Of a stretch of 64,000 nt of DNA, positions 33,435 to 62,734 are shown one piece after another; the stretch's first letter is position 1, and each line of letters opens with the position of its first letter. A model generated the notes under the pieces. The model was given only the letters and a program-made list of their open reading frames with translations, did not search any database and had not been told where the DNA came from. This DNA is from Saccopteryx bilineata (taxonomy: Eukaryota > Chordata > Mammalia > Chiroptera > Emballonuridae), in NCBI RefSeq assembly GCF_036850765.1, contig NC_089491.1, positions 87,762,740 to 87,826,739 of the forward strand, in the 5' to 3' direction. The translations under genes and the position numbers were made by a program.

Positions 33435-36400
33435 TTATGTTCCACCAATGTATGGAATCATGTAGTTCTTGTTTTTTTCTGATTTGCTTATTTCACTCCT
33501 TATAATGTTATCAAGATCCCACCATTTTGCTGTAAATGATCTGATGTCATCATTTCTTATGGCTGAGTAGTATTCCATAGTGTATATGTGCCACATCTTC
33601 TTTATCCAGTCTTCTATTGAAGGGCTTTTTGGTTGTTTCCATGTCTTGGCCACTGTGAACAGTGCTGCAATGAACATGGGGCTACATGTGTCTTCACGTA
33701 TCAATGTTTCTGAGGTTTTGGGGTATATACCCAGTAGAGGGATTGCTGGGTCATAAGGTAGTTCTATTTTCAGTTTTTTGAGGAACCACCATACTTTCCT
33801 CCATAATGGTTGTACTACTTTACAGTCCCACCAACAGTGAATGAGGGTTCCTTTTTCTCCACAGCCTCTCCAACATTTGCTATTACCCGTCTTGTTGATA
33901 ATAGCTAATCTAACAGGAGTGAGGTGGTATCTCATTGTAGTTTTGATTTGCATTTCTCTAATAACTAATGAAGCTGAGCATCTTTTCATATATCTGTTGG
34001 CCATTTGTATCTCTTCCTGGGAGAAGTGTCTGTTCATGTCCTCTTCCCATTTTTTTATTGGATTGTTTGTTTGTTTGTTGTTGAGTTTTATGAGTTCTTT
34101 GTAAATTTTGGATATTAGGCCCTTATCTGAGCTGTCGTTTGAAAATATCAGTTCCCATATAGTTGGCTGTCTGTTTATTTTGATATCAGTTTCTCTTGCT
34201 GAGCAAAAACTTTTAATTCTGATGTAGTCCCATTCATTTATCTTTGCCTTCACTTCTCTTGCCATTGGAGTCAAGTTCATAAAATGTTCTTTAAAACCCA
34301 GGTCCATGATTTTAGTACCTATGTCTTCTTCTATGTACTTTATTGTTTCAGGTCTTATATTTAGGTCTTTGATCCATTTTGAATTAATTTTAGTACACGG
34401 GGACAGGCTGTAGTCGAGTTTCATTCTTTTGCATGTGGCTTTCCAGTTTTCCCAACACCATTTGTTGAAGAGGCTTTCTTTTCTCCATTGTGTGTTGTTG
34501 GCCCCTTTATCAAAGATTATTTGACCATATATATGTGGTTTTATTTCTGGGCTTTCTATTCTGTTCCATTGGTCTGAGTGTCTATTTTTTTGCCAATACC
34601 ATGCTGTTTTGATTATCGTGGCCCTATAATATAGTTTAAAGTCAGGTATTGTAATGCCCCCAGCTTCATTCTTTTTCCTTAGGATTGTTTTGGCTATTCG
34701 GGGTTTTTTATAGTTCCATATAAATCTGATGATTTTTTGTTCCATTTCTTTAAAAAATCTCATAGGGATTTTGATGGGAATTGCATTAAATTTGTATATT
34801 GCTTTGGGTAATATGGTCATTTTGATTATATTTATTCTTCCTATCCAAGAACAAGAAATATTTTTCCATCTCATTGTATCTTTTTCGATTTCCCTTAACA
34901 ATGCTTTGTAATTTTCATTATATAGGTCCTTTACGTTCTTTGTTATGTTTATTCCTAGGTATTTTATTTTTTTTGTTGCAATCGTGAAGGGGATTATTTT
35001 TTTGAGTTCGTTTTCTAATATTTCATTGTTGGCATATAGAAAGGCTATGGACTTTTGTATGTTAATTTTGTATCCTGCGACCTTACTGTATTGGTTTATT
35101 GTTTCTAATAATCTTTTTGTGGAGTCCTTCGGGTTTTCGATGTATAGGATCATATCATCAGCAAAAAGTGATAGCTTTACTTCTTCTTTTCCGATATGGA
35201 TGCCTTTTATTTCTTTGTCTTGTCTGATTGCTCTGGCCAGAACTTCTAGCACCACGTTGAATAAGAGTGGAGAGAGTGGACAACCCTGTCTTGTTCCTGA
35301 TTTAAGGTAGAAAGTCCTCAGTTTTATGCCGTTTAATAGGATGTTGGCTGATGGTTTATCATATATGGCCTTTATCATGTTGAGATATTTACCTTCTATA
35401 CCCATTTTGTTGAGAGTCTTAAACATAAAATTGTGTTGTATTTTATCAAAAGCCTTTTCTGCATCTATTGATAAGATCATGTGGTTTTTGTTCTTTGTTT
35501 TGTTGATATGGTGTATTACGTTAACCGTTTTGCGTATGTTGAACCATCCTTGAGATTCTGGGATGAATCCCACTTGATCATGATGTATTATTTTTTTAAT
35601 ATGTTGTTGTATTCGGTTTGCCAGTATTTTGTTTAGTATTTTAGCATCTGTATTCATTAGAGATATTGGTCTGTAGTTTTCTTTCTTTGTGCCATCCTTG
35701 CCAGGTTTTGATATGAGGGTTATGTTGGCCTCATAAAATGTGTTTGGAAGTATTGCTTCTTCTTCAATTTTTTGGAAGACTTTGAGTAGAATAGGAACCA
35801 AGTCTTCTTTGAATGTTTGATAGAATTCACTAGTATAACCATCTGGGCCTGGACTTTTATTTTTGGGGAGATTTTTAATAGTTTTTTCTATTTCCTCCCT
35901 GCTGATTGGTCTGTTTAGGCTTTCTGCTTCTTCATGACTCAGTCTAGGAAGGTTGTATTGTTCTAGGAATTTATCCATTTCTTCTAGATTGTTGTATTTG
36001 GTGGCATATAATTTTTCATAGTATTCTACAATAATTCTTTGTATTTCTATGATGTCTGTGGTGATCTCTCCTCTTTCATTTTGGATTTTATTTATTTGAG
36101 TCCTGTGTCTTTTTTCCTTGGTGAGTCTTGCCAAGGGTTTGTCAATTTTGTTGATCTTTTCAAAGAACCAGCTCCTTGTTTTATTGATTTTTTCTATAGT
36201 TTTTCTGTTCTCTATTTCATTTATTTCTGCTCTGATTTTTATTATCTCCTTTCTTCGGCTGGTTTTGGGTTGTCTTTGTTCTTCTTTTTCTAGTTCCTTA
36301 AGGTGTGAAGTTAAGTGGTTTACTTCGGCTCTCTCTTGTTTGTTCATATAGGCCTGAAGTGATATGAACTTTCCTCTTATTACTGCTTTTGCTGCATCCC

Positions 36401-37262
36401 AGAGATTCTGATATGTCGTATTTTCATTTTCATTTGTCTGTATATATCTTTTGATTTCTGCGCTTATTTCTTCTTTGACCCATTCATTTTTTAGAAGTAT
36501 GTTGTTTAGTTTCCACATTTTTGTGGGTTTTTCCCCCTCTTTTTTGCAGTTGAATTCTAGTTTCAAGGCTTTATGATCAGAAAATATGCTTGGTACAATT
36601 TCAATTTTTCTAAATTTGCTGATATTGTCTTTGTGGCCCAACATATGGTCAATTCTTGAGAATGTTCCATGTACACTAGAGAAAAATGTATACTCTGTCG
36701 CTTTGGGATGAAGTGTCCTGTAGATGTTTATCATATCCAGGTGCTCTAGTGTTTCGTTTAAGGCCACTATATCTTTATTGATTCTCTGTTTGGATGACCG
36801 ATCTAGAGCCGTCAGCGGTGTATTGAGGTCTCCAAGTATGATTGTATTTTTGTTAGTTTTTGTTTTAAGGTCAATAAGTAGCTGTCTTATATATTTTGGT
36901 GCTCCTTGGTTTGGTGCATATATATTAAGGATTGTTATGTCTTCTTGATTCAACTTCCCCTTAATCATTATGAAATGACCATTTTTGTCTCTGAGTACTT
37001 TTTCTGTCTTGTAGTCAGCATTATTAGATATGAGTATTGCTACACCTGCTTTTTTTTGGGTGTTGTTTGCTTGGAGTATTGTTTTCCAGCCTTTCACTTT
37101 GAATTTGTTTTTATCCTTGTTGCTTAGATGTGTTTCTTGTAGGCAGCATATAGTTGGATTTTCTTTTTTAATCCATTCTGCTACTCTGTGTCTTTTTATT
37201 GGTAAGTTTAATCCATTTACATTTAGTGTAATTATTGACACTTGTGGGTTCCCTACTGCCAT
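33435..37262 (-). CDS. LINE-1 ORF2 protein: endonuclease and reverse transcriptase, intact
   Basis: ORF2p nicks target DNA and reverse-transcribes L1 RNA from the nick (target-primed reverse transcription), acting as a cytoplasmic RNP that enters the nucleus. The 1,275 codons are uninterrupted, the same length as human ORF2p. Endonuclease (1-240): N14 in LNVNGLN, E43 in QETHL, D145 and N147 in GDLN, D205, and S228-D229-H230 are all present. RT (about 450-800): motif A D600 ([10 protein letters not shown]) and motif C F700-A-D-D703. The C-terminal Cys/His cluster [18 protein letters not shown] lies near residue 1,140. Translation starts at MAVGNPQVS, the ATG directly preceding the conserved '[11 protein letters not shown]'. 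It overlaps by 10 nt a small upstream frame, a geometry that would suit termination-reinitiation. Plus-strand frames across this region are shadows. Confidence 0.97.
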
Positions 37263-37495
37263 TTTATAAATTGCTTTCTGTTAGTTTTGTATCTAGTTTG
37301 ATTCTTCTCTTTTGTTTTTCTATCATTTGTTTTTGTTTGTTTTTGTTCCATACTTCTTTCCTCTGTTGCTACCTTTTTTAAGTCAAGTGTTTTTGTGGTG
37401 GTTTTTTTAAGGGTGGTTACCATTAAGTAATGAAAAGGGTACCTACCATATTCATTGTAGTACCCTATCTTATAAGTATTTCTGCACTTCATCAT
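37253..37495 (-). other. 80-codon small open frame in the LINE-1 inter-ORF spacer
   Basis: It occupies most of the spacer between ORF1 and ORF2 and ends with TAG 5 nt downstream of the ORF2 ATG. The product would be very Lys/Thr/Gln-rich with no domain. It is probably not a real protein gene but may matter as an upstream frame for ORF2 initiation. The two older L1 copies here with readable inter-ORF regions have no equivalent spacer length. Confidence 0.3.
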
Positions 37496-43548: not shown

Positions 43549-44171
43549 GGTCAGTAAACTGCGGCTCACGAGCCACATGCAGCTCTTTGGCCCCTTGAGT
43601 GAGGCTCTTCCACAAAATACCACATGCGGGCACTAGCTCGATAAGGAATGTACCTACCTATATAGTTTAAATTTAAAAAATTTGGCTCTCAGGCCCTGGC
43701 CGGGTTGGCTCAGCGGTAGAGCGTCGGCCTAGCGTGCGGAGGACCCGGGTCCGATTCCCGGCCAGGGCACACAGGAGAAGCGCCCATTTGCTTCTCCACC
43801 CCTCCGCCGCGCTTTCCTCTCTGTCTCTCTCTTCCCCTCCTGCAGCCAAGGCTCCATTGGAGCAAAGATGGCCCGGGCGCTGGGGATGGCTCTGTGGCCT
43901 CTGCCCCAGGCGCTAGAGGGGCTCTGGTCGCAACATGGCGACGCCCAGGATGGGCAGAGCATCGCCCCCTGGTGGGCAGAGCGTCGCCCCTGGTGGGCGT
44001 GCCGGGTGGATCCCGGTCGGGCGCATGCGGGAGTCTGTCTGACTGTCTCTCCCTGTTTCCAGCTTCAGAAAAATGAAAAAAGAAAAAAAAAAAAAATTTG
44101 GCTCTCAAAAGAAATTTCAATCGTTGAACTGTTGATATTTGGTTCTGTTGACAAATGAGTTTGTTTGATGG
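43549..44171 (+). mobile_element. Non-autonomous hAT element with a SINE inside
   Basis: Left: 'CCTGGTCAGTAAACTGCGGCTCACGAGCC' and 'GCAGCTCTTTGGCCCCTTGAG'. Right: 'GGCTCTCAAAAGAAATTTC', 'GTTGATATTTGGTTCTGTTG', ending ATGAGTTTGTTTGATGG. The ends are imperfectly inverted (AGTAAACT / AGTTTGTT). Flanks GCATAGGG (left) and GTATAGAG (right) fit a worn 8-bp target duplication, as hAT elements make. No transposase sequence. Confidence 0.8.
43692..44090 (+). mobile_element. tRNA-derived bat SINE, type A, young, 17-bp target duplication
   Basis: Sense copy, most CpGs intact: 'GGCTCAGCGGTAGAGCGTCG' A box, 'CGGGTCCGATTCCCGGCCAG' B box, 'GGAGAAGCGCCCATTTGC', GA/CT middle, tandem 'GCATCGCCCCCTGGTGGGCA' units, 'CTTCAGAAAAATG' before the tail. 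AAAAAATTTGGCTCTCA flanks both ends (43,675-43,691 and 44,091-44,107). Best copy in the window for defining the family. Confidence 0.96.
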
Positions 44172-49936: not shown

Positions 49937-49942
49937 GTGGGC
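49937..49942. repeat. Target-site duplication of the provirus, left copy
   Basis: GTGGGC, repeated at 62,729-62,734 directly outside the right LTR. Six bases is the length usual for betaretroviral integration. Confidence 0.85.
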
Positions 49943-50399
49943 TGTTGTAGACTGCAAGTGGCAAAGAGCCTTTATAAATTTGAGGCTTAACAAAAGGCTA
50001 AATTCTCCCCCCACCACCTCCATATTGGCTATATGCTGAGTATTTGCACCCACTTCACTTGATTGCTTAAGTTGCTCAAAGCAATTTACATGCCCTTCCT
50101 CTCACTCTTTGTTTGTTCAGATGTTGGTTAATTTTGCTTATGCATAGTGAGGGGATTCCTGTTTATGCCTTGGGAGAGTTCCTGTTTTTGCCTCAAATGT
50201 GTAACTTTGTATCAAGGACTTCCTTGTTTTGCATATGGCTATATAATAAAGCAAACTGGGGCTATGGGGCACTCGGATTTTGCCATCAGCTTTCAAGAGG
50301 CCTCCCAATCCCATCCTTTATTCTTAATGAGTTTGTTTTCTTAAATTCACACTGTTCTCACTCAAGACCCAGAATTACGAGCTGCCCTGGTCCATGGCA
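49943..50399 (+). repeat. Provirus 5' LTR (457 bp)
   Basis: It begins TGTTGTAG and ends ATGGCA (TG...CA). A TATA-like/AATAAA cluster lies at 50,240-50,250. By hand count about 39 positions differ from the 3' LTR (roughly 8-9%), an old but not ancient copy. Confidence 0.92.
50240..50250 (+). promoter_or_regulatory. LTR TATA box overlapping a poly(A) signal
   Basis: TATATAATAAA combines a TATA motif and AATAAA within 11 bp; identical in the 3' LTR (62,569-62,579). Overlap of the two is seen in short betaretroviral LTRs. Confidence 0.6.
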
Positions 50400-50401
50400 A
50401 G

Positions 50402-50419
50402 TGGCACCCAAACAGGGAC
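50402..50419 (+). other. Primer-binding site, Lys-tRNA type
   Basis: TGGCACCCAAACAGGGAC, two bases after the LTR end. It differs from the 3' end complement of tRNA-Lys3 at two positions, both explained by CpG decay (CG to CA). Confidence 0.85.
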
Positions 50420-50523
50420 TTGAGTACGAGAAAACTAAACTAAAGGCAGGTGATGGAACTCCCTCATTGTGCACAGTGAGGAAAGAAGGCTTTTGGGGAG
50501 AGTATAATCAGGAGTAAAAAAAT

Positions 50524-50799
50524 ATGGTACAATTAGGGCCAAACCTTTTTGTAAGAATACTTATGCAGCTAAAATGCTTTTTGCAATATGTTCATGACGT
50601 GTGCCCATGGTTCCTGGAGGAGGGAATGGTTATTTCTGCTACAGGAGAACAAGTAGGTAAAGCTCTGGGAAAGCAGTGGTGTGAGGAGACTGTGGTCGGA
50701 GGAGTAAAAGTGGCAGTCTCTCTGGCAGTTGGTGCTGTATTTTGCGGCTTGGGGGCTGTAGGACAGTGTGGCTGCCTCTGGTTCTCTCCAGCTGCTTAG
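50524..50799 (+). pseudogene. gag: Betaretroviral gag remnant, matrix N-terminus
   Basis: A frame of 91 codons beginning 125 bp after the primer site. The stretch with C-P-W-F-L-E-E-G at about residues 27-34 has the spacing and wording of a betaretroviral matrix protein N-terminal domain, which directs capsid assembly and membrane targeting. The initiator reads ATG-GTA, so the Gly needed for myristoylation is replaced by Val. After about residue 50 the resemblance fades into unrelated sequence. No capsid or nucleocapsid region is recognisable before the protease, so most of gag is deleted or decayed. Confidence 0.65.
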
Positions 50800-51735
50800 T
50801 CTGCCACTCAGTTGAAGTTGAGGTAGGGGAGAAATCTCAGCATAGTCAACTTGAACTGCCGATTATAGCAACTATAGAATTTGAGAATGAATAGGAGACT
50901 CAGGTATTAGGAACATTACAGCTTTTCCTCTTATGGTCTGATTTTCTTTAATGTTTTAACTACAATCTTCTGAACTATCATCTGGTTTCTTTCTTATTCT
51001 TTGCCTGGAAATTGAGTCAGGGGACCTGTGTTGGATCTGACTATAGAAAATATCCCAGCAGCTGCCAAAAGGGGAAATTTTATTTAGCCCCATCCTTCAG
51101 TTCCACTCTCAAAAAATGCCCTGACTAAAATCAGGCAGGCATCTTTCTAATCTGGTAGTGCTCTGAAATCCTGGGTTTCTCTCTGGTTTGTCTGGTTTGT
51201 CTAATTCTTGTTTCTGTTTAGTCTTTGTTTAATGTTGTCTAAAATGTGTCTGTTTTTAAGGCCTGAATTAAGTTCTTGCATGCAAAAATTGGAAATGCCA
51301 GTCTAATATTGAAAAAATAAAATGATTTTAGAATTTGTAAGGAGTACTCATCTAAATTTAAATAGAATAGAATGTAGATCCTTAAGATTTACTAATTTGG
51401 TTAGTGCATTGTGAGGCATGTTCAGAGTTAGGAGCCAAACAGCAATTTAAATATTAGGGTTAATCAAAGTTATATGTTATACTTGTGGGTTTTTTTTTTT
51501 TTTTTGCATAAATTGTCTTGTTTATGTGTAAGGCTATACTCAGGTAGGTAAAAGGAATGGAGCAAAATTAAGCAGGGCTTTAATAAGTCATTTCAAGAAT
51601 TTGTCTCAAGCTGCTTCAAGCAGTATGAAGAATAGTATAAGGATGTTAATTCTGCTTCTCAGGCCACATCCTGCAAAAGGGACCCCGAGAGAATTGAGGA
51701 TTTGGCTTCTCTGATTTTGCGTATTGGATTCAAAA
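50800..51735. other. Decayed gag/leader interval of the provirus
   Basis: No frame here shows capsid (major homology region) or zinc-knuckle motifs. It contains a T16 run at 51,488-51,504. Either decayed gag or non-retroviral filler. Confidence 0.5.
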
Positions 51736-52207
51736 GATAGATCAGGAATGCCCTAAAATGGAACTAATAATACAAGTGCATGAATTTAAAGAACTTTTAG
51801 ATACTGGAGCTGATATATCCATTATTGCTAAGCTACATTGGCTTCCTTCCTGTCCCACTTATGCAGCAGCCACAGAATTACAAGGTATAGGGCAGAGTAA
51901 ATCCCTTCAATAAAGCTCTAGTTTTTTACAATGGGAAGACAAAGAAGGTCATTCTGAACTTTTTCAGTCTTATATATTCCCTAGATTGCCAGTTAATTTG
52001 TGGGGTAGAGATGTTTTGAAAAATATGGGAGTGTTGCTCATCAGTCCTAATAGTTTAGTCAGTATATCAAGCTTTAACACAGAGGACTTGGTAGCTCCTG
52101 CTACCCCAATAATGCACTGTGCAGACCCAATTACATGGAAATTAGATAATCCTGTATGGGTAGACCAATGGCCCTTTTCTCAGAAGAAACTTAAGGCAGC
52201 TGCTTGA
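51736..52207 (+). pseudogene. pro: Betaretroviral protease remnant
   Basis: Aspartic protease that processes Gag and Pol. The active-site triad L-L-D-T-G-A is intact (D-T-G-A at 51,800-51,811), followed by D-I-S-I-I. The C-terminal helix signature N-L-W-G-R-D is at about 51,995-52,012. A TAA after LQ (near 51,912) and TGA at 52,205 interrupt the frame. The G-patch extension usual for this genus is not found, and the sequence passes directly into RT in the same frame, so the pro-pol junction is probably deleted. Confidence 0.85.
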
Positions 52208-52960
52208 TTGGTACAAGAGCAGTTACAGCTTGAGCACAATGAACCTTCTAATAGCCCAAGGAATATGCCTATATTTGTTATTAAAAAGAAATCAGGAAAC
52301 TGGACTCTATTACAAGATTTGAGAGCAATAAATAAGACTGGAAATTATGGGTCCTCTCCAGCTAGGACTCCCTTCTTCTACTGCTATTCCATGGAATTTT
52401 TACCTTGTAATTATTGACTTGAAGGATTGCTTTTTCATTATTCCATTAAACCCTCATAATTGCAAGCATTTTGCACTCAATGTTCCTTCATTTAATTTCC
52501 AGGCTCCAATGGGGTGACACCAGTAGCCTCAAGGTATGGCTAATAGTCCTACCTTGTGCCAAAAATATGTTGCTCAAGGTATCTCTCCAGTAAAAAAGCA
52601 GCATCCTAAGGCGTACATAATTCATTATATGGATGATATTCGTATTGCTCATCCAGATAAAGACACTGGGTTGACCATTTTGCAACAATAGAATATTCTT
52701 TGAAAGAATCAGGACTTTATATAGCTCCTGAAAAGGTGAGCAATCTTTACCTTTCTCTTATTTAGGACAAATTATCGAGGGACAAGGAATTCGTCCACAA
52801 AAATTAGAAATCAGGACAGATCATTTGCAAACTTTAAATGATTTCCAGAAATTATTAGGAGACATTAATTAGCTTAGATATTCCTTGAAATTAACTACCG
52901 GGAAACTGTAGTCACTTTTTAATATTCTTGGAGACTTGGCTGAACCAGCTTTTCCTCGGC
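52085..52960 (+). pseudogene. pol: Betaretroviral reverse transcriptase remnant
   Basis: RT copies the viral RNA into DNA. W-K-L-D-N-P-V-W-V-D-Q-W-P at about 52,136-52,175 starts the domain. [10 protein letters not shown] near 52,275-52,305 and D-L-R-A-I-N-K-T near 52,318-52,342 mark the fingers, and Y-M-D-D (52,626-52,637) is the catalytic site, in a different frame from the start. Several frameshifts (around 52,355-52,420, 52,500-52,560, 52,690 and 52,740) and stops break it. The catalytic motif A region (D-L-K-D-C-F near 52,420-52,437) is readable. Confidence 0.85.
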
Positions 52961-53169
52961 TACTTACAGCTGCAGGGTAGCAAGCTTTAAAGCTTATAGA
53001 AAAAGCCTTGCAACAAGCACAACTAAAATGCAAAAATCCTGAAGCATCAATTGCCTTACTAATTTGTCCTTTGAGTTACACTCCAATGGGATTATTGTGG
53101 CAAGCTCCAGGTCCTATTGCATGGATTCATTTAGCTGTTACTTCTAAGAAAGTTTTATCTCTGTATTTT

Positions 53170-53720
53170 GATCTTGTCATCTCCTTAATTATCAAGGGGG
53201 GTATGTGACTCTTACATCTTATAGGTTCTGAGCCTCAAATTATTGTTATTCCTTTTCAAAGGATCAACAACAATGGCTCTGGGAAACTTCCAATAAATGG
53301 CAAATTGCTTTTGCAAATTTTACAGGCCACATTGATTCTCACTACCCAGCTGATAAAATTGTTCAATTTTCATTAATTACTACATTTGTCTTTCCTAAGA
53401 CAATTGTTAATGAGCCCATTCTTGAAGCATCTACAGTCTTTACTGATGGGTCCAGTCCAGGAATAGCAGGCTTAATAATCTATGGACAAGTTTATACTGA
53501 AACAGTCACCTTTAAATCAGCTCAAAGAGTAGAATTACATGCCATTATCATGGCTTTTCAGCATTTTCCATGTTCCTCCTTTAATTAGCAAATATTTACT
53601 TATGGTTGTTTCTACTATAGACATTGCTGTCTTAGGGACAACTGCTAATAAGAAACTATTTTATCAATTTTTCCTTCTTCAAAGACTTATACATCAACAT
53701 AGAGCTCCATGTTTTATAGA
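53170..53720 (+). pseudogene. pol: Betaretroviral RNase H remnant
   Basis: RNase H degrades the RNA strand of the RNA:DNA hybrid. F-T-D-G-S at 53,439-53,453 holds the first catalytic Asp. R-V-E-L-H-A-I at 53,528-53,548 holds the catalytic Glu. A D-I-A-V segment near 53,620 is in a shifted frame. Frameshifts occur upstream (around 53,210-53,290) and after 53,570. Confidence 0.75.
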
Positions 53721-53739
53721 ACATATTTGAGCTCACTTC

Positions 53740-54174
53740 ATGCCCCCTGGAACTTTAGCCCTTGTTAATCAAGCTACCCAAAAGAAAATTATTGGAATAA
53801 CCATGACAGATCAAGCAATCCAGTCTCATACTATTCATCACCAGAATGCTGCAGCCTTGAGTAAACAGTTTCAACTTTCTCAGGAAGCAGCATGGCAGAT
53901 TGTTCAATCCTGTCCAAGGTGTCCTATACTACAATCTGTCCCTTCATTTGGAATTAACCCTCGAGAACTCCTAACAGGACAATCTTGGCAAATGAATGTT
54001 ACTCATATACTTTCATTTGGCAAACAGTCCTTTATCCACATTAGAGTAGATACTTATTCTGGATTTATAGTAGCTTCTGCCAGAACAAGGAAGGCCGCTA
54101 AGCATGTTTTAGCTCACTGTCTCTATGCACTTTCTACTATTGGACTTCCTAAACTGATTAAAACTGACAATACT
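53740..54174 (+). pseudogene. pol: Betaretroviral integrase, N-terminal and first half of the core
   Basis: Integrase joins viral DNA to host DNA. The zinc-binding region is complete: His codons in S-H-T-I-H-H (53,827-53,841) and C-P-R-C (53,911-53,922). The core begins W-Q-M-N-V-T-H-I; the position normally holding the first catalytic Asp reads Asn (AAT, 53,995-53,997). V-D-T-Y-S-G-F follows at 54,046-54,066. The second Asp in K-T-D-N (54,166-54,168) is present. The frame is open for 171 codons but only because it runs into the inserted L1, which cuts it eight bases after that Asp codon; the continuation is at 60,631. Confidence 0.88.
54161..54174. repeat. Target-site duplication, left copy, of the L1 inside the provirus
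   Basis: AAACTGACAATACT here and AAACTTGACAATAT at about 60,630-60,643. The copies are diverged (one inserted base and one substitution) but are plainly the same integrase codons repeated. Confidence 0.8.
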
Positions 54175-54175
54175 C

Positions 54176-55650
54176 AGGGGGTGTGGCAAGCTGGCGATGG
54201 AGTAGGCAGATGTACCAACTTCCACCTCCCAGAACCAAAGTGGATTACAACTTAATTTTAAGAACCATCATCTGGAAAAACCAACTTTGGACTAAACTAA
54301 GAGGACTCTTTACCTAAGGAACACTGAAAAGCCATACTGAGACTGGTAGAAAAAGTGGAAACACGGGGAGGGCTGCCCAGCTCCCAGGCATGAATGGCAG
54401 CCTGGAGAGACTCCCATGGCGGGAATTGAGTTTAGTGGAGAGGGAAGGGTCCTGGGCTCCAGGAACAAAGCTCCAGCCTGCTGCCCCAGAGCCTAGAAGA
54501 AGTGTGTGGACAGTATTTAGCTGCAAAACAAGTCAGGATACTGTTTGTGAAAAAGAGACAGATTTCTCAGACCCAGGATTCTTCTTAAAGGGACCGTGCA
54601 AAAAACCTCTTTCACAACCACTCACCTGAGACTCTGGAAGACTGGGAGAGTTGAAGGACCAGAGTAGCAGGAAGAGAGATTAATCTAGGAGGCACAGGGA
54701 GAAATACTTTGAGGGATAGCCACCCTAACCCCTGGGCTGAGTCACCCCCCAAATCTAAAGTGAATATTTCCCTTAGACTCAGCAATACCAGCAAAGGGAA
54801 GCAGGATGCCTGCCAAACAAGCTCTCCTATGGCACTCAGAGCAGAAAGCTTAGAAGGAGGGAGCCTTCAGGAATACAGTATTGAAAGCTTGGGTCTGAAC
54901 TGCAGTGCCCCCACCCACACTGCTGAGGGCTCACTGGAGGGTAGGTGGCAGCGAGACATGAAGTGCAATCCCTTCGGCAGGGGCAGAAACTGGGTCAACC
55001 ATGACTGAGGCGCAGCATGAGCTCAGTCTCGCCTGGTTGGTGCAGAAGGGGTGCACGAAAGCAGTCCAGTGTGGCTGCAGGGCCTGGCAGGCAACAGGAG
55101 TCCCACCTGCAATCCTGCCTGCAGAAGAAAGGCAAAAGCCTGGGAACAGCAGAGACCTGTAGCTGAGTGCTGGCACACAGCCCACCCCGCCCGCGGAGCC
55201 AGGGATTGCAGCCCAATGTGTGAGCACAGCTCCACCCATGGGGGAGGGACAAAAGCCCAGGAACAGGCAGAGACCAGCAGCTGAGCATTGGTGTGCAGCC
55301 CTGCCTGCAGTGCCAAGGCTTGCAGCCCCAGGTTCAGCTTGCAGCTTCACCCACAGGAGTGGGGTGGAAGCCAAGGTTGGCAGAGGCATGTAGACCAGGG
55401 CACGTGAACACAGCAACTCCTGTGGAGGACAGAAGGAAACTGCACTGACAGCCACAGGGGCCAGCACAGGTAGCACCCATACCCTAATGCCTGAGGCAGT
55501 GGCAGAGGGAGTTGCGGTCCTATAGACAGACCACACCTAGGGAACACAGAGACCACACCCATTGGACTCCAGTGTCCACACCCTTCTTATACACAGACAA
55601 AATGGGAAGGCAGAGAAATGCAACCCAAATGAATCAAGAGTAATCCCTAG
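54176..55650 (+). promoter_or_regulatory. 5' UTR of the old LINE-1
   Basis: GC-richer than the surroundings, with 'GCCTGGCAGGCAACAGGAG'-like and 'GCAGAGACC(A/T)G' phrases recurring at 55,080-55,300. It produces long chance frames on the minus strand (up to 201 codons at 54,931-55,536). CpG is largely decayed to TG/CA. Confidence 0.8.
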
Positions 55651-55658
55651 AAAAGGAC

Positions 55659-56604
55659 ATGAATGAGTCAGATATAACCAAATTACCAGATGCAGAGTTT
55701 AAAATAATGACTGTTAGGATGCTTAAAAATCTTAGAACAACAACAGATGGACATAATGAACACCTAAATAAAAAGATAGCAAGTATAAAAAAGGACATTA
55801 AAATAATAAAAAAGAATCAGTTAGAAATGACAAATACAATATCAGAAATGAAGACCACAACAGAAAGAATTAAAAGCAGGATGGATGAATCTGAGGATCA
55901 AATCAGCGAGTTAGGGGACAAGATAAACAAAGGCATGGAAGCAGAACAGAGAAAAGAAAAGAGACTCAAAAAGTCTGAGGAAACTCTAAGAGAGTTCTGT
56001 GACAACATGAAGAGAAATAAGGTCCACATCATAAGGGTTTCTGAATAAGAAGAGAAAGAACAAGGAATATAGACTTTGTTCAATAAAACATAGCTGAAAA
56101 CTTCCCTAAATTGATGCAGGAAAAAGTCACACAAGTTCAAGAAGCACAGAGAATTCCATTAAAGAGAAACCCAAAGAAATTCACACCAAGACACATGATA
56201 ATTAAAATACCAAGAGATAAAGAGAAAATATTAAAAGCTGCTAGAGAAAAAAAGGCTATCACCTACAAAGGAGCCTCCATAAGAATGACATCTAACTTCT
56301 TAACAGAAACACTTGAGGCCAGAAGGGAATGGTAAGAAATATTCAAATAATGCAGAACAAGAGCCTACAACCAAGACTACTTTATCCAGCAAGACTATTG
56401 CTTAAAACTGAAAGAGAAATAAAAAGCTTCCCAGACAAAAAAACAAAAACAAAAAACAACCCCCCCCAAAAAAAACCAAACACAACAACCTCAAGAAATT
56501 CATTACATCCAAACGAATGCTGCAAGAAATGTAAGGGGCCTGTTGTAAACAGATCAAAGGGTGAAAAGAATACAGCAGAAGAGAGATACAACATTAAAGA
56601 ATAA
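55659..56604 (+). pseudogene. LINE-1 ORF1 remnant
   Basis: It opens MNESDITKLPDAEFKIM with a coiled-coil region to about 56,010. The RRM start (NMKRNKVHIIRVSE, 56,005-56,046) runs into a TAA. The C-terminal domain continues in another frame at 56,111-56,335 (ILKAAREKKAITYKG, then TSNFLTETLEARREW). A stop follows RREW and the tail runs at 56,329-56,604. At least two frame changes make it non-functional. Confidence 0.88.
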
Positions 56605-56608
56605 AATG

Positions 56609-59600
56609 CCAATAAACAACTACATATCAATAATAACTTTAAATGTGAATAGATTAAATGATCCAATCAAAAGATATAGGGAAGCTGCATTGATAAGAAA
56701 ACAGGACCCATACATATGCTGTCTACAAGAGACACAACTTAAAACAAAAGATGCACATAGACTGAAGGTAAAACTATGGAAAAAATATTTCATGCAAAAA
56801 GAAACAAAAAAAATCTGGGGTAGCAATACTTATATCAGACAAAATGGACTTTAAAACAAAGGCTATAGTAAGAGATAAAGAAAGTCACTACATAATGATA
56901 AAGGGAGCAATCCAACAGAAAGATATAACCATTTTAAATGTCTATGTACCTAACATAGGAACACCTAAATATATAAAGCAGACTTTTATGGATATAAAGG
57001 GAGAGATCAACAGCAATACTATAATAGTAGGATATTTCAATACCCTACTAACTTCACTAGATAGATCCTCAAGAAAGAAAATTAACAAAGTAACAGCAGA
57101 CTTAAAAGACATACTAGATCAACTGAATTTAATAGATATCTTCAGAACCTTTCACCCTAAAGCAGAATATGCATTCTTTTCAAGTGCTCATGGTACATTC
57201 TCTAGGATAAAACACATGTTAGGGCATAAAAGTGGTCTTAACAAATTTCAGAAGATTGAAATCATATCAAGCACTTTCTCTGATCACAATGGCATGAAAC
57301 TAGAAATCAACCACAGAGAAAAACTAAAAAATACTCAAACACTTGGAAACTAAATAGCATGTTATTAAATAATGAATGGGTTAACAATGATCAAAGAAGA
57401 AATAAAAAAATTCCTAGAAATGAATGATAATGAGCATACAACAACTCAAAATTTATGAGACACAGCAAAAGCAGTACTGAGAGGGAAGTTCATAGCATTA
57501 CTGGCATACCTTAAGAAACTGGAAAAAGCTAAAATAAACAACTTAACCCTGCATCTAAAAGAACTGGAAGAAGAACAGCAAGTAAAGCCCAAATGTAATA
57601 GAAGGAAAGAAACAATAAAGATCAGCATGGAAATAAATGGCATAGAGGCTAAAGAAACAATACAGAGGATCAATGAAACCAGGAGCTGGTTCTTTGAAAA
57701 GGTAAACAAGATTGATGAACCTTTAACAAGACTCGCCAAGAAAAAGAGAGAGAGGACTCAAATAAATAAAATTAGAAACGAGAGTGAAATGAATAAATAA
57801 ATAAAGTTAAAAAAGAAAAGAAAATACTATGAAGAACTATACAGCAAAAAATTACACAACCTAGGTGAAATGGACTAATTCCTTGAAATATATTATCTTT
57901 TAAAAACCAATCTGGAAGAATCAGAAAACCTAAACAGACCAATTACAACAAATGATATTGAAACAGTTATCAAAAACCCCCCAACAAACAAAAATCCTGG
58001 GCCTGATTGCTTCACAAGTGAATTCTACTAAATATTCAAAGAACTAACTCCTATCCTTCTCAAGCTATTTCAAAAAATTCAAGAGGAAGGAAGACTTCCA
58101 AGCTCTTTTATGAGGTGAGCGTAATTATGATTCCAAAATCAGGCAAAGACAACACAAAGAAAGAAAATTATAGGCCAATATCCCTGATGAATTTAGATGC
58201 TAAAATCCTCAACATAATATTAGCAAACTGGATCCAGCAATATATGAAAAAATCATCCACCATGCTCAAGTGAGATTTAATCAGGGAAGGCAAGGCTGGT
58301 ACAATATTTGCTAGTCAATCAATGTGATTCATCACATAAACAAAAGGAGAATAATGACATGATAATTTCAATAAATGCAGAAAAAAGCATTTGATAAAAT
58401 CCAGCACCCATTCATGATCAAAACTCTCAGCAAAGTGGGAATACAGGGAACATACCTCAATATGATAGAGGCCATCTATGACAAACACACAGACAACATC
58501 ATACTTAATGGGCAAAAATTAAAAGCAATCCCCTTAAGATCAGGAACAAGGCAGGGGTGCCCCCTTTCACCACTCTTATTCAACATAGTTCTGGAAGTCC
58601 TAGCCACAGCAATCAGATAAGAAAAAGAAATAAAAGGCATCCAAATTGGAAAAGAAGAAATAAAACTATCCTTATTTGCAGATGATATGATATTGTTTAT
58701 AGAAAACCCTAAAGTCTCAGTCAAAAAGCTACTGGACCTCATAAATGAATTCAGCAAAGTGGTAGGATATAAAATTAATACTCAGAAATCAGAGGCATTT
58801 TTATAAATGAACAATGAACTGTCAGAAAGAGAAATTAAGGAACAATCCCCTTCACTATTGCAACAACAAAAAAGTACCTAGGATTAAATTTAACCAAGGA
58901 GATTAATGACTTGTACTCAGAAAATTATAAAACACTGATAAAAGAAATCAAGGAAGATACAAACTACTGGAAGCATATATCATGCTCATGGTTAGGAAGA
59001 ATAAACATCATAAAAATGTCTATATTCCCCAAAGCAATTTATAAATTCAATGCAATTCCTATTAAAATACCAATGACATATTTTAAAGATATAGAACACA
59101 TATTCCAAAAATTTATATGGAATCAAAAAAGAACACGAATAGTTTCAGCAATCTTGAAAAGGAAGAATAGAGTGGGAGGTATCACACTTCCTGATATCAA
59201 GTTGTACTACAAGGGCAATGTACTCAAAACAGCTTGGTACTGACATAAGAACAGACATATAGATCAATGGAACAGAACAAAGAACCCAGAAATAAACCCA
59301 CACTTTTATGGACAACTGATATTTGACAAAGGAGGTAAGAGCATACAATGGAGTAAAGATAGTCTTTTCAACAAATGGTGTTGGAAAAATTGGACAACTA
59401 CCTCCAAAAAAATGAAACTAAAGCACCAACTCACACCATTCTCAAAAATAAACTCAAAATGGATAAAAGACTTAAATGTAAGTCGTGAAACCATAAGCAT
59501 CTTAGAAGAAAACATAGGTAGTAAGATCTCCGACATCTCTCACAGAAATATATTTACTTATTTGTCTCCATGGGCAAGTAAAATAAAAGACAGGATAAAC

Positions 59601-60200
59601 AAATGGGACTATATCAAACAATAAAGCTTTTGCACAGCTAAAACAATAAGAACAGAATAAAAAGACAAACTACACAATGGGAGAACATATTTGACATTAC
59701 ATCTGATAAGGGATTAATAACCCAAATTTATAAAGAACTTGTAAAACTCAACAACAGAAAGATAAACAGTTCAATAAAAAATGAGCAAAATAAATGAATA
59801 GACACTACTCCAAAGAGGACATACAGATGACCAATGGTCATATAAAAAAAATGTTCAACATCACTAATCATTAGAGAAATGCAAATTAAAACCACAATGT
59901 GGTATCACCTCACACCAGTCAAAATGGTGCTCATCAACAAAACAACACAGAATAAGTGCTGGCGAGGATGTGGAGAAAAGGGAACCCTCCTGCACTGCTG
60001 GTGGGAATGCAGACTGGTGCAGCCACTGTGGAAAACAGTATGGAGATTCCTCAAACATTAAAAGTGGAACTGCCTTTTGACCCTGCTATCCTAGTTTTAG
60101 GAATATACCCCAAGAACACCATAGCACTGATTCAAATAGAGAAATGCACCCTCATGTTTATGGCAGCATTGTTCACAATAGCGAAGATCTGATAACAGCC
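56609..60200 (+). pseudogene. LINE-1 ORF2 remnant
   Basis: The endonuclease start [11 protein letters not shown] is at 56,627-56,659, so ORF2 opens only a few bases after the ORF1 frame closes. Q-E-T-Q replaces Q-E-T-H at 56,728-56,739. F-S-D-H is near 57,279-57,290. The RT motif F-A-D-D-M is at 58,675-58,689. The C-terminal [18 protein letters not shown] is at 59,957-60,010. Stops and frameshifts are scattered throughout. Confidence 0.9.
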
Positions 60201-60629
60201 CAAGTATCCGTCAGTGGATAAGTGGATTAAAAAGCAGTGGAACGTATATACAATGGAATATTATGGGGCTATGAAAAAGAAGGAAATATTATGTTTTGCA
60301 ACAATATGGAAGGACCTGGAAACTATTATGTTGAGTGATATAAGCCAGGCAGAGGAAGAAAAATATCATACGACCTCACTCATTGAGGAATCCAGTGAAC
60401 AGTGTGAACTGAGGAATGGAATTGAGACAGAGGAGAGATCAAAGGGATCAGAGGAAAAGAGAACAGAGGGAAAGGGGATGATAGAATGGGATAAACCTGA
60501 AGGGAAGTGGGAAGAGCACTATAGGGAGGGGGACAAAGGAGATATTGAGGGAAATAGGGGGGAAGAGGGATGCATTCGGAGCAAGAAAAAAAAAAAGTAA
60601 ATAAAGTACCAGAAAAACAAAACAAAAAA
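60201..60629 (+). other. Old LINE-1 3' UTR and A-rich tail
   Basis: Purine-rich, with GGGAGGGGGAC (60,525-60,536) and AAATAGGGGGGAAGAGGG (60,552-60,569). A-rich tail from 60,585 interrupted by TAAATAAAGTACC. Confidence 0.75.
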
Positions 60630-60630
60630 A

Positions 60631-60900
60631 AACTTGACAATATTTCTACATGTGTAGGAAAAGCATTTACTATATTTTGTCAAACCTTTCAAATTATGGG
60701 GTTTCTTACAATCTTTAAAGTTAAGGTATTATTAAAGTGTGCCCAGCAAATATTTAAGTCAATTTTAAAAAATATAAAAGGTTGAGTAATCATGCTTTTT
60801 ACTTTAAAAAATTTCTTTTGAATGCTGATGCACAGGAGTCACCAAACCTCTTTCTCCTGCAAAGTTCTACCCTCTTTTATTTGATCCAGCTAATAATGCT
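60631..60900 (+). pseudogene. pol: Betaretroviral integrase, second half (after the L1)
   Basis: It resumes at the duplicated D-N codons and continues with K-A-F-T-I-F-C-Q-T-F-Q-I (60,663-60,698). A region reading L-L-K-C-A-Q-Q-I-F-K-S-I-L-K-N-I-K-G (60,729-60,782) sits where the third catalytic residue helix lies. L-N-A-D-A-Q (about 60,817-60,834) follows. The third catalytic residue region is damaged by a deletion between about 60,700 and 60,728. After about 60,860 the resemblance is lost. Confidence 0.78.
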
Positions 60901-60949
60901 GTTTTGTCTTTTTCCAAATAGCTCCATATATAAGAAAAAAAGTTCATAT

Positions 60950-61345
60950 AAGCAGGTGTGTACCCTCAAACCCCTCAGTGAGATCTTCTGAGCATGGCTT
61001 TTAAAGTCTATAATGACCAAGAGGCAGACAAAGCCCAATAGAGATCAGGCAAAATACCAGCTCTTGGCATATGCCCTTAAAGGCTCCAACACCCTGAATG
61101 GGCCTCATAGGACTCCATCTGGCCCTGCTTCAACAGTGAAAAGAAATGTTATTGAGCTAAAGCCTGACAGGCTTCTCAGCCGCCACCAGAGCCATGCCTT
61201 TGCTGTGGAGAAAAAGAGACACTGGAAGGTAAGCTGCCCCCTCACTCCTCTAAGGGAGGGTTCAGTATCTTCCAGCCCTGCTCCAGCCACCTGTGACCTA
61301 ACCTTGCCCAGCCTACTGGGACTTGCCACTGAAGGCTAAAGTGCC
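60950..61345 (+). pseudogene. gag: Gammaretroviral (class I) gag remnant: capsid end and zinc knuckle
   Basis: M-A-F-K-V-Y-N-D (60,994-61,017) is in one frame. R-D-Q-A-K-Y-Q-L-L-A-Y-A-L (61,040-61,078) follows in the next. A single CCHC zinc knuckle comes after: C-x2-C at 61,195-61,203 with G-E-K, then H-W-K at 61,220-61,228 and C-P at 61,235-61,240 after a one-base frame change. A lone knuckle with H-W is the gammaretroviral type (betaretroviruses have two). The region ends L-L-G-L-A-T-E near 61,313-61,333, where gammaretroviral protease begins. Packaging and assembly functions are lost. Confidence 0.75.
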
Positions 61346-61548
61346 CAGGGCCATCGACCCCATCTCACATCTCTGTGGATGAGCCTAGGGTATTTCTTAC
61401 AAGTAGCAGGTAAACTCATTTCTTATGGACACAAGATCTACTTACTATGTCTTGAATGAATATTCGGTTTTTATTCATCCCTCGAAGATCTCTGTTGTGA
61501 CTGTTGATAGTCCTATTTTCTGCTGCTTTGTTTAATATATACTACCTC
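61346..61548 (+). pseudogene. pro: Gammaretroviral protease remnant, second protease of this provirus
   Basis: Text reading Q-V-A-G-K-L-I-S (61,410-61,433) precedes an active-site-like L-M-D-T-R (61,432-61,446) in the shifted frame. The Gly of the Asp-Thr-Gly triad is Arg (AGA). Then Y-V-L-N-E-Y-S (61,456-61,476) and P-S-K-I-S-V-V-T-V-D-S-P (about 61,479-61,516). Frameshifts and stops break it. The RT and RNase H that should follow are absent. Confidence 0.72.
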
Positions 61549-61555
61549 CTTTATT

Positions 61556-61845
61556 CCTCCTGCCTTAATGCCCCATTCATATTTTATGCTGGGACCTACT
61601 CCTAATTTAGAGCTCTCTTTCTCTTTTTGCCAACTTCTGTTACAAATTTACCTCTGCCACCCAGTATAGTGTATCCCAAGGTTCTCCTCACCACACCATG
61701 GCTGTAAAGCTTCAGGGAAAGGCCCCCTGGGTTTATCTCTCCTGTTTAAAGAAAATGGAAACTCCATCTCCATATGTGCTGCAGATGGTTTTTGCAGTCT
61801 TCCTGAATCATTACCAGCTAGAAGCAGCAGTCATTGGGACTTGAA
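61556..61845 (+). pseudogene. pol: Gammaretroviral integrase C-terminus remnant
   Basis: From about 61,560 text changes to a gammaretroviral integrase end: G-P-T-P-N-L-E-L-S (61,589-61,615 region), then L-L-T-T-P near 61,685-61,699. A-V-K-L-Q-G-K-A-P-W-V-Y-L-S (61,701-61,742; G-K-A-P-W-V-Y-L at 61,716-61,739) belongs to the GPY/F-type SH3-like domain. The last frame ends L-E-A-A-V-I-G-T-stop at about 61,842. About 3 kb of pol between this and the protease is missing, so the insert carries an internal deletion. Confidence 0.72.
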
Positions 61846-62116
61846 TGCTAGCTGCAAAGTGTAGAAATGTGACAACAATTCCAGTGCCATGTGGACTTTT
61901 TCTGGATGTATTTCCTGTACTCCTGCTCCTTGTGATAGCTCTTAATAGACTGAACTGGGGTTGAGTTGCATTTTCAGGGAATGCAGAATGATGACGTGTC
62001 AGCATGGACTTGGTGAACAATTTAAGGACATTTAAAACAAGAAAGACTCTTTTATAGATCCTGTTATATTGTCTAAGAATGTGCTTAAAGGCTTTAATCC
62101 CTGTAATGTATAAGAA
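61846..62116 (+). other. Env-region remnant, unassigned
   Basis: A hydrophobic stretch V-F-P-V-L-L-L-L-V-I-A-L (61,908-61,943) followed by N-R-L lies in one frame. It could be a membrane anchor from either retroviral component. Frames are otherwise broken. Confidence 0.4.
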
Positions 62117-62278
62117 TACTTGTTTGGGTATCTGTTAGCATTGGCTATACTAATTTTGTGTTTATTCTGTATTTTTTCAGTCTGCTCCAAATTAGAATCT
62201 AGGACACTAGGAAATCAGATGAGTATAAATCTCAGCACACAAATTAAAAATAAAGAAGAAAAAAAGGATATGTTGTAG
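62117..62278 (+). pseudogene. env: Retroviral env transmembrane anchor and cytoplasmic tail
   Basis: A 53-codon open frame. A hydrophobic segment Y-L-F-G-Y-L-L-A-L-A-I-L-I-L-C-L-F-C-I-F (62,117-62,176) is followed by S-V-C-S-K and a polar tail with K-N-K-E-E-K-K-D-M-L. It runs through the polypurine tract and stops at TAG (62,276-62,278), 8 bases into the 3' LTR. The overlap of env with PPT and LTR start fits a betaretroviral layout. The surface subunit and fusion peptide are missing. Confidence 0.6.
62251..62270 (+). other. Polypurine tract
   Basis: AAAGAAGAAAAAAAGGATA directly precedes the TG of the 3' LTR: the plus-strand primer site. Confidence 0.8.
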
Positions 62279-62728
62279 ACTGCAAGTGGCAAAAAGCCTT
62301 TGTAAATTTGAGGCTTAGCAAAAGGCTAAGTTCTCCCCCCACCACCTCCCTATTGAATATGATGCTAAGTATTTATACCCACTTCACTTGCTTGCTTAAG
62401 TTGCTCCAAGCAATTTACATGCCCTTCCTCTCATTCTTTGTTTGTTCATATGTTGGTTGATTTTGATTATGCATAGTGGGGGGATTCCTGGTTATGCCTT
62501 GGGAGAGTTCCTGTTTTTGCCTCAGATGTGTAACTTTGTATCAAGGACTTCCTTGTTTTGCATATGGCTATATAATAAAGCAAACTGGGGCTATGGGGCA
62601 CTCGGATATTGCCCTCAGCATTGAAGAGGCCTCCCGATCTCAACCTTTTTTCTTAATGAGTCTGTTTTCTTAATTCAGCACGGTTCTCTCTCAAGGACCA
62701 GAACTATGAGCTGCACTGGTCTGTGGCA
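62271..62728 (+). repeat. Provirus 3' LTR (458 bp)
   Basis: It begins TGTTGTAG and ends TGTGGCA, with the TATA/AATAAA cluster near 62,569-62,579. Aligned by eye to the 5' LTR along its whole length. Confidence 0.92.
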
Positions 62729-62734
62729 GTGGGC
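62729..62734. repeat. Target-site duplication of the provirus, right copy
   Basis: GTGGGC, identical to 49,937-49,942. Confidence 0.85.

What the first reader, a model, noticed from the sequence alone, without database searches (positions are those of the whole stretch)
60950..61845. Gammaretroviral gag-pro-integrase fragment inside a betaretroviral provirus
Seen: between the end of the betaretroviral integrase (about 60,860) and the env tail/polypurine tract, the sequence reads as a single-CCHC zinc knuckle with H-W. A protease D-T-R active-site region (61,438-61,446) and an integrase end with G-K-A-P-W-V-Y-L (61,716-61,739) follow. Known: a single knuckle followed by protease in this manner is the gammaretroviral layout, while betaretroviruses have two knuckles and a different pro. 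The provirus thus contains two protease and two integrase relics from different genera. Inferred: template switching between two co-packaged retroviral RNAs, plausibly the event that brought in a gamma-type env, with later deletion of the gamma RT and SU. An independent insertion by L1 or recombination is the alternative.
Basis: partly seen in the sequence, partly recalled or inferred. Interest (0 to 1): 0.82.

Follow-up and report, generated by a model that had tools for sequence, protein, structure and literature searches.

The report
Betaretrovirus family carrying gammaretrovirus relic
In this large animal genome, a many-copy family of old betaretrovirus-like elements carries, after its own integrase gene, the same broken piece of a gammaretrovirus-like element, likely picked up once by copying between two RNAs and then spread as a passenger.

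Summary
The gammaretroviral relic is real and is not a local accident. The provirus (LTRs 49943-50399 and 62271-62728, 6-bp target duplication) is betaretrovirus-like and is split by a later L1 (about 54175-60628). After its integrase tail, about 60955-61844 holds nucleocapsid knuckles, a protease and only the end of an integrase. Profiles built from gammaretroviral loci of the same genome match the protease and integrase parts in many copies; betaretroviral protease and reversed controls do not. A genome search matched the segment at 40 of 40 scored places, the window included. Of 40 loci read, 38 share the left junction and 39 the right, so the segment joined before the family spread. Corrections: there are two knuckle-like motifs, not one, and nothing found links the segment to a gamma-type env. 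The protease triad lacks its glycine in 37 of 37 readable copies, and three frame breaks are nearly universal among the copies tested, so the segment was probably dead when it amplified. RNA template switching from a decayed transcript is most likely; DNA insertion into one source provirus is the main rival. The donor was not found.

The parts
49943..50399 (+). 5' LTR (TG...CA), preceded by 6-bp target duplication GTGGGC at 49937-49942
   Evidence: LTR pair K2P 0.086
50402..50419 (+). Primer-binding-site-like stretch TGGCACCCAAACAGGGAC (lysine tRNA type, recalled)
   Evidence: sequence; tRNA assignment recalled, not tested
50518..50796 (+). Betaretroviral matrix remnant (Gag_p10)
   Evidence: Pfam E=3e-5; other copies also hold parts of p24
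51698..52204 (+). Betaretroviral protease in two open pieces
   Evidence: RVP E=1.4e-9 and 1.2e-5; PDB best hits 1nso, 3sqf, E about 3e-7
52208..54170 (+). Betaretroviral RT, RNase H and 5' part of integrase, broken
   Evidence: RVT_1, RNase_H, Integrase_Zn, rve
54175..60628 (+). L1 element inserted into the integrase gene after the provirus integrated; ends approximate
   Evidence: L1 RBD Transposase_22 E=9.5e-15, RVT_1; in 33 of 40 other copies 54175 and 60629 lie within 45 bases of each other; short imperfect flanking duplication
60629..60955 (+). 3' tail of the betaretroviral integrase; right end approximate
   Evidence: continuous with 54175 in other copies; no Pfam match of its own
60955..61165 (+). 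Probable end of gammaretroviral-type capsid and a first, decayed zinc-knuckle-like motif
   Evidence: capsid: motif reading only (no E<=1e-3); knuckle-like motif clearer in L029 and L031
61166..61330 (+). Second zinc knuckle, split over two frames, and linker
   Evidence: an open piece of L031 matches PDB Gag polyprotein 8pug E=9e-4 and other nucleocapsids more weakly
61390..61600 (+). Gammaretroviral protease remnant, triad D-T-R at 61428-61436; ends approximate
   Evidence: profile hits in 11 loci E<=1e-3; triad count
61678..61844 (+). Last part of gammaretroviral integrase C-terminal domain and downstream open piece; RT, RNase H and most of integrase missing before it
   Evidence: profile hits in 12 loci E<=1e-3, best 2.2e-7
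61845..62270 (+). 3' stretch with a hydrophobic open piece and polypurine tract; affinity unknown, possibly env tail
   Evidence: no retroviral family match; continuous with the segment in 39 of 40 loci
62271..62728 (+). 3' LTR, followed by GTGGGC at 62729-62734

Best explanation
A remnant of a gammaretrovirus-like element of about 0.9 kb (nucleocapsid, protease, the end of integrase, and a probable capsid end) sits after the integrase gene of a many-copy betaretrovirus-like family, and it was likely acquired once, by reverse-transcriptase template switching onto a co-packaged transcript of an already decayed gammaretroviral element, before the family spread. Shown: the gammaretroviral identity of protease and integrase end; the shared junctions; the LTR-bounded unit with 6-bp target duplications in the window and in part of the copies; similar divergence of the segment and the backbone. 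Shown for the copies read: the protease triad lacks glycine and three frame breaks are nearly universal, so the segment was probably dead on arrival and carried as a passenger. Inferred: that the switch happened between RNAs rather than in DNA, that the donor had already lost RT and most of integrase, and that the family moved with proteins supplied in trans, since gag looks incomplete in the four copies scanned.
For:: the 851-nt segment matches 40 of 40 scored places (window included; 5132 first-look candidates) at 83-100% identity, nearly all over almost its whole length; of 40 loci (20 chosen by the segment, 20 chosen by the betaretroviral integrase tail alone), the left junction is continuous in 38, the right in 39, both in one alignment in 34, and 36 reach the 3' LTR; 6 of 6 loci chosen by the right flank alone (6 of the 40 rows) have the segment's end beside it; gammaretroviral integrase and protease profiles match; betaretroviral protease does not (best E 0.17); reversed controls are empty at 1e-3; nucleocapsid similarity; mean identity to the window is alike over seven regions (0.883-0.906; 16 to 39 copies per region); triad third residue R in 36 and K in 1 of 37 readable copies; three of 13 tested joins are broken in 37/39, 34/39 and 36/38 copies; 6-bp target duplication exact in the window; in 10 other copies 2 exact, 4 with one mismatch. 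The segment lies in sense order.
Against: No donor gammaretroviral element was found, and no betaretroviral relative without the segment was seen, so the direction and moment of capture are not fixed. Capsid and the nucleocapsids of three gammaretroviral loci gave no hit at 1e-3 (best 0.3 and 0.0089). The GPY/F motif is not readable in the copies. In 4 of 10 other copies no target duplication was seen. Frame assignments rest on my reading of motifs; the other 10 joins vary, and at one of the three near-universal breaks the window itself is in frame. Searches scored only the best 40 places, so loci without the segment could be under-sampled. RNA-level and DNA-level joining cannot be told apart from these copies.
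Confidence: 0.62

Rival explanations
1. A gammaretroviral fragment entered one source provirus at the DNA level (insertion, gene conversion or end joining), and that provirus then seeded the family.
For: Gives the same shared junctions and the same shared decay. The genome is rich in gammaretroviral elements (150 scored of 2894 candidates), and one locus with elements side by side was read.
Against: No insertion marks: the best direct repeat around the segment is not beyond shuffles (76 of 500 for close flanks, 338 of 500 for wide ones) and no poly-A tract lies at its 3' end. Sense orientation and gene order fit RNA joining slightly better.
Confidence: 0.24
2. A later, local insertion of a gammaretroviral fragment (for example by L1) into this one provirus.
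For: An L1 did insert nearby, in the integrase gene.
Against: 39 of 40 loci share at least one junction of the segment, and 6 of 6 further loci carry its end beside the right flank.
Confidence: 0.01
3. The segment is a decayed duplicate of the element's own betaretroviral gag-pro-pol, not gammaretroviral.
For: Two knuckle-like motifs, as in betaretroviruses; the PDB nucleocapsid hits whose names tell the virus are HIV-1.
Against: Betaretroviral protease pieces of the same family do not match the segment (none at 1e-3, best 0.17), while gammaretroviral protease and integrase profiles do.
Confidence: 0.03
4. The segment is the remnant of a longer chimera with a complete second gammaretroviral gag-pro-pol.
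For: One locus had a betaretroviral integrase 3.3 kb upstream of a clean gammaretroviral integrase end.
Against: Reading between them showed the usual compact segment, then an L1, then gammaretroviral integrase sequence not joined to it.
Confidence: 0.04

Closest known systems
Mosaic ('noncanonical') human ERVs, including Harlequin and a few cross-class mosaics (PMC4724089, passages read)
   Same: Recombinant proviruses, some of which multiplied after the recombination event
   Different: Most are within one class. Cross-class cases named in the passages I saw are env acquisitions and MaLR pieces on class I or II bodies; here a gag-pro-integrase relic sits at the 3' end of pol of a class II family
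Group VIII betaretroviruses with a gammaretroviral env, including bat elements (PMC3621094, passages read)
   Same: Betaretroviral body plus gammaretroviral sequence 3' of pol
   Different: There the gained piece is env; here it is the end of gag, protease and the end of integrase, broken, with no recognisable gammaretroviral env
Secondary ('piggy-back') integrations in ERVs (PMC4724089, passages read)
   Same: Foreign retroviral sequence inside a provirus
   Different: Described there as often single LTRs inside another element; this one is shared by a family at one position
Env recombination by template switching or env acquisition (review PMC10536682, passages read)
   Same: Proposed copy-choice mechanism
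   Different: The review concerns env; no gag-pro capture appeared in the passages read

Membership tests
Class II (betaretrovirus-like) ERV backbone | Betaretroviral Gag, protease and pol domains | tested here: met
Class II (betaretrovirus-like) ERV backbone | 6-bp target duplication (recalled as typical) | tested here: met
   window exact; in 10 other copies 2 exact, 4 with one mismatch, 4 without
Class II (betaretrovirus-like) ERV backbone | Two gag zinc knuckles and dUTPase N-terminal of protease | tested here: inconclusive
   not found in 9 of the 27 open pieces listed for four copies; probably deleted
Class I (gammaretrovirus-like) segment | Gammaretroviral protease | tested here: met
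   profile from 3 loci of the same genome: 11 loci E<=1e-3; betaretroviral protease none
Class I (gammaretrovirus-like) segment | Gammaretroviral integrase C-terminal domain | tested here: met
   profile from 20 of the 150 scored MLVIN_C places: 12 loci E<=1e-3; last part of the domain only
Class I (gammaretrovirus-like) segment | GPY/F motif in integrase (PMC1224870) | tested here: not met
   copies read VYPKVLL or similar where most of the 20 gammaretroviral loci read GPY, GPH or GPF before xV
Class I (gammaretrovirus-like) segment | Single gag zinc knuckle (usual, not universal) | tested here: not met
   two knuckle-like motifs in L029, L031; PMC1224870 reports two in the HERV-H group
Class I (gammaretrovirus-like) segment | Gammaretroviral capsid | tested here: inconclusive
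   no hit E<=1e-3 with capsid pieces of three loci
Recombinant ERV that multiplied | Same breakpoints at many loci, in LTR-bounded units | tested here: met
L1-mediated insertion | Poly-A tail and target duplication around the segment | tested here: not met
Betaretrovirus with gammaretroviral env (group VIII) | Gammaretroviral env | tested here: inconclusive
   no retroviral family match in pieces of 61845-62270 or of the same stretch in copies

The most novel reading that the evidence does not exclude
The captured gammaretroviral segment was kept not as protein but as RNA: lying between pol and the 3' LTR, not far from where type D retroviruses carry a nuclear-export element, it supplied an export or packaging signal that let a gag-damaged betaretroviral element ride in gammaretroviral or other particles and multiply.
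Probability: 0.1. Interest if true: 0.75.

Novelty: new variant of a known kind. Interest (0 to 1): 0.5.

Why it matters
Cross-genus recombination between retroviruses is known mainly as env exchange. This family shows a piece of gag-pro-integrase from another genus, probably already broken, fixed at the 3' end of pol of an element that then multiplied. If the RNA route is right, decayed ERV transcripts can be co-packaged and copied across genus lines, and such passengers do not stop a family from spreading. The many copies make donor, crossover points and timing testable by comparison alone.

Tried and rejected
Local insertion: rejected by shared junctions. An 18-nt direct repeat at 60,818 and 61,841, first taken as a possible target duplication: not beyond shuffles. 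A longer chimera with a complete second pol: rejected at the one suggestive locus. A pol-less sub-family: I noted it, then withdrew it, because in L025 the odd stretch lies after pol and the other four loci were fetched with only 500 bases upstream. Codon-position test for selection: no phase signal in the segment; weak, and mixed for pol too. Searches of viral and prokaryote contigs and of the protein collection gave nothing. Pfam and PDB with the window's own pieces gave no retroviral match for the segment. Host: a SINE with a tRNA-Ala-like head looks to me like a bat SINE, recalled and not tested; a paper search for it found none.

Full report
What is there. The window holds one provirus with LTRs at 49943-50399 and 62271-62728, flanked on both sides by GTGGGC, with LTR divergence K2P 0.086. 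Open pieces match betaretroviral families: Gag_p10, RVP in two pieces, RVT_1, RNase_H, Integrase_Zn and rve (10 pieces scanned, 6 with a retroviral match). The closest solved proteases are 1nso and 3sqf (I recall these as Mason-Pfizer monkey virus, the table does not say so). The integrase gene is interrupted by an L1 (L1 RBD and RT domains): in 33 of 40 other copies window 54175 and 60629 lie within 45 bases of each other.

The segment. Between the integrase tail (to about 60955) and 61844 the sequence reads, in broken frames and in order, as a probable capsid end, two zinc-knuckle-like motifs (the first decayed), a protease with D-T-R at 61428-61436, and the last part of an integrase. The window's own pieces give no retroviral Pfam or PDB match in the segment, so I used other copies.

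It is a family trait. The host genome (2.61 Gb, 256 contigs) contains the 851-nt segment at 40 of 40 scored places, the window included, 83-100% identical, out of 5132 first-look candidates. I fetched 20 of these 40 (rows 2-21) and 20 of the 42 rows found with the betaretroviral integrase tail alone; the other rows were the window, rows in the first list, or left out for the limit of 20 stretches per call. Of these 40 loci, 38 run unbroken across the left junction, 39 across the right, 34 across both in one alignment, and 36 reach the 3' LTR. L015 fails the left test because of an insertion just before it; L045 fails both because its match stops at 61016. Six further loci, taken from the 40 rows found with the right flank alone, all carry the segment's end beside it; one has an insertion between. 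Mean identity to the window is alike for protease, RT, RNase H-integrase, tail, segment, 3' stretch and LTR (0.883-0.906, with 16 to 39 copies per region), so the segment has probably been in the family as long as the rest.

It is gammaretroviral. I searched the genome for the MLV integrase C-terminal family (150 scored of 2894 candidates), took 20 of these places and built a profile. Among 908 stop-free pieces of the segment region from 40 copies and the window, 12 loci matched at E<=1e-3 (best 2.2e-7); of the reversed pieces none did (best 0.44). Of seven stretches fetched upstream of such places, three held a protease that I recognised by reading. Their profile matched 11 loci at E<=1e-3, none reversed (best 6.1), and its front and back parts fall at the expected window places. 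Betaretroviral protease pieces of the same family gave nothing (best 0.17). An open piece of L031 with both knuckle-like motifs matches Gag polyprotein 8pug at E=9e-4 and other nucleocapsids at 0.0085 and above. Against: capsid and nucleocapsid pieces of the three gammaretroviral loci gave no hit at 1e-3 (best 0.3 and 0.0089), Pfam on ten open pieces of other copies gave only a zinc knuckle at E=0.099 below its cut-off and unrelated weak hits, and the GPY/F motif is not readable. PMC1224870 (passages read) found that motif in gammaretroviral and in no betaretroviral ERVs of human and chicken, and reports two zinc fingers in the HERV-H group, so two knuckles do not exclude a gammaretrovirus.

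It was probably dead when it spread. In the 37 copies (window included) where the triad can be read, its third residue is R in 36 and K in 1, never G; four more are gapped there. Of 13 frame joins tested in 39 copies, three are broken in 37 of 39, 34 of 39 and 36 of 38; the other ten vary, and at one of the three the window itself is in frame (frames assigned by my reading). RT, RNase H and most of integrase are missing between the protease match and the integrase match, about 61600-61680. A codon-phase test showed nothing in the segment, but it is weak.

How it arose. Both junctions are shared, and the unit is bounded by LTRs; a 6-bp duplication is exact in the window and, of 10 other copies with both ends located, exact in 2, with one mismatch in 4 and absent in 4. 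The chimera therefore existed before these integrations. Sense orientation, gene order and lack of insertion marks (no poly-A) favour template switching between co-packaged RNAs; insertion into one source provirus at DNA level remains possible. In four copies whose 5' pieces I scanned (9 of 27 listed pieces), matrix, part of p24 N and a little of p24 C are found before the protease, so gag looks incomplete and help in trans is likely; this is inference. LTR divergence of 11 other copies is 0.088 on average (0.060-0.119); with a recalled mammalian rate of 2-3e-9 per site and year this is roughly 15-22 million years.

What it is not. No sign of a gammaretroviral env was found in the pieces of 61845-62270 or of the same stretch in other copies that I searched; I leave that stretch unassigned. 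One locus that suggested a complete second pol turned out to be a normal copy followed by an L1 and then gammaretroviral integrase sequence.

Literature. From paper searches I saw listings, and I read passages of PMC3621094, PMC4724089, PMC1224870, PMC2577118, PMC6995185 and PMC10536682. They describe mosaic ERVs and env acquisition across classes. No gag-pro-integrase capture of this kind appeared in these listings or passages; this does not show that none is in print.

Noticed in passing
54175-60628: A long L1 inserted into the proviral integrase gene, with a short imperfect flanking duplication; in 33 of 40 other copies the two sides lie within 45 bases.
   Followed up: yes
52061-52064: Many other copies carry roughly 100 extra bases here, so this provirus seems to have lost a short piece.
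   Followed up: partly
L025, L043, L045, L046, L048 (upstream of the integrase tail): A stretch of up to about 310 bases, 68-77% like window 51113-51404, lies about 200 bases before the integrase tail in these five copies; in L025 it comes after pol. Unexplained.
   Followed up: partly
50400-51700 and the same region of L010, L012, L024, L028: The family's own gag looks deleted: matrix, part of p24 N and a little of p24 C are found, but no nucleocapsid knuckles or dUTPase in the pieces scanned.
   Followed up: partly
43691-44096 and other copies in the window: A SINE of about 400 bp with a tRNA-Ala-like head, several copies in the window.
   Followed up: no
33478-37267: Another L1-like stretch, antisense, 71% like the one in the provirus.
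   Followed up: no
host genome, places listed: Many gammaretroviral integrase ends, some in long open frames (up to 1178 aa), so gammaretroviral elements of various ages are present.
   Followed up: partly
L018:2504-2743 (-): This copy shows extra residues in the integrase tail that the window does not show.
   Followed up: no
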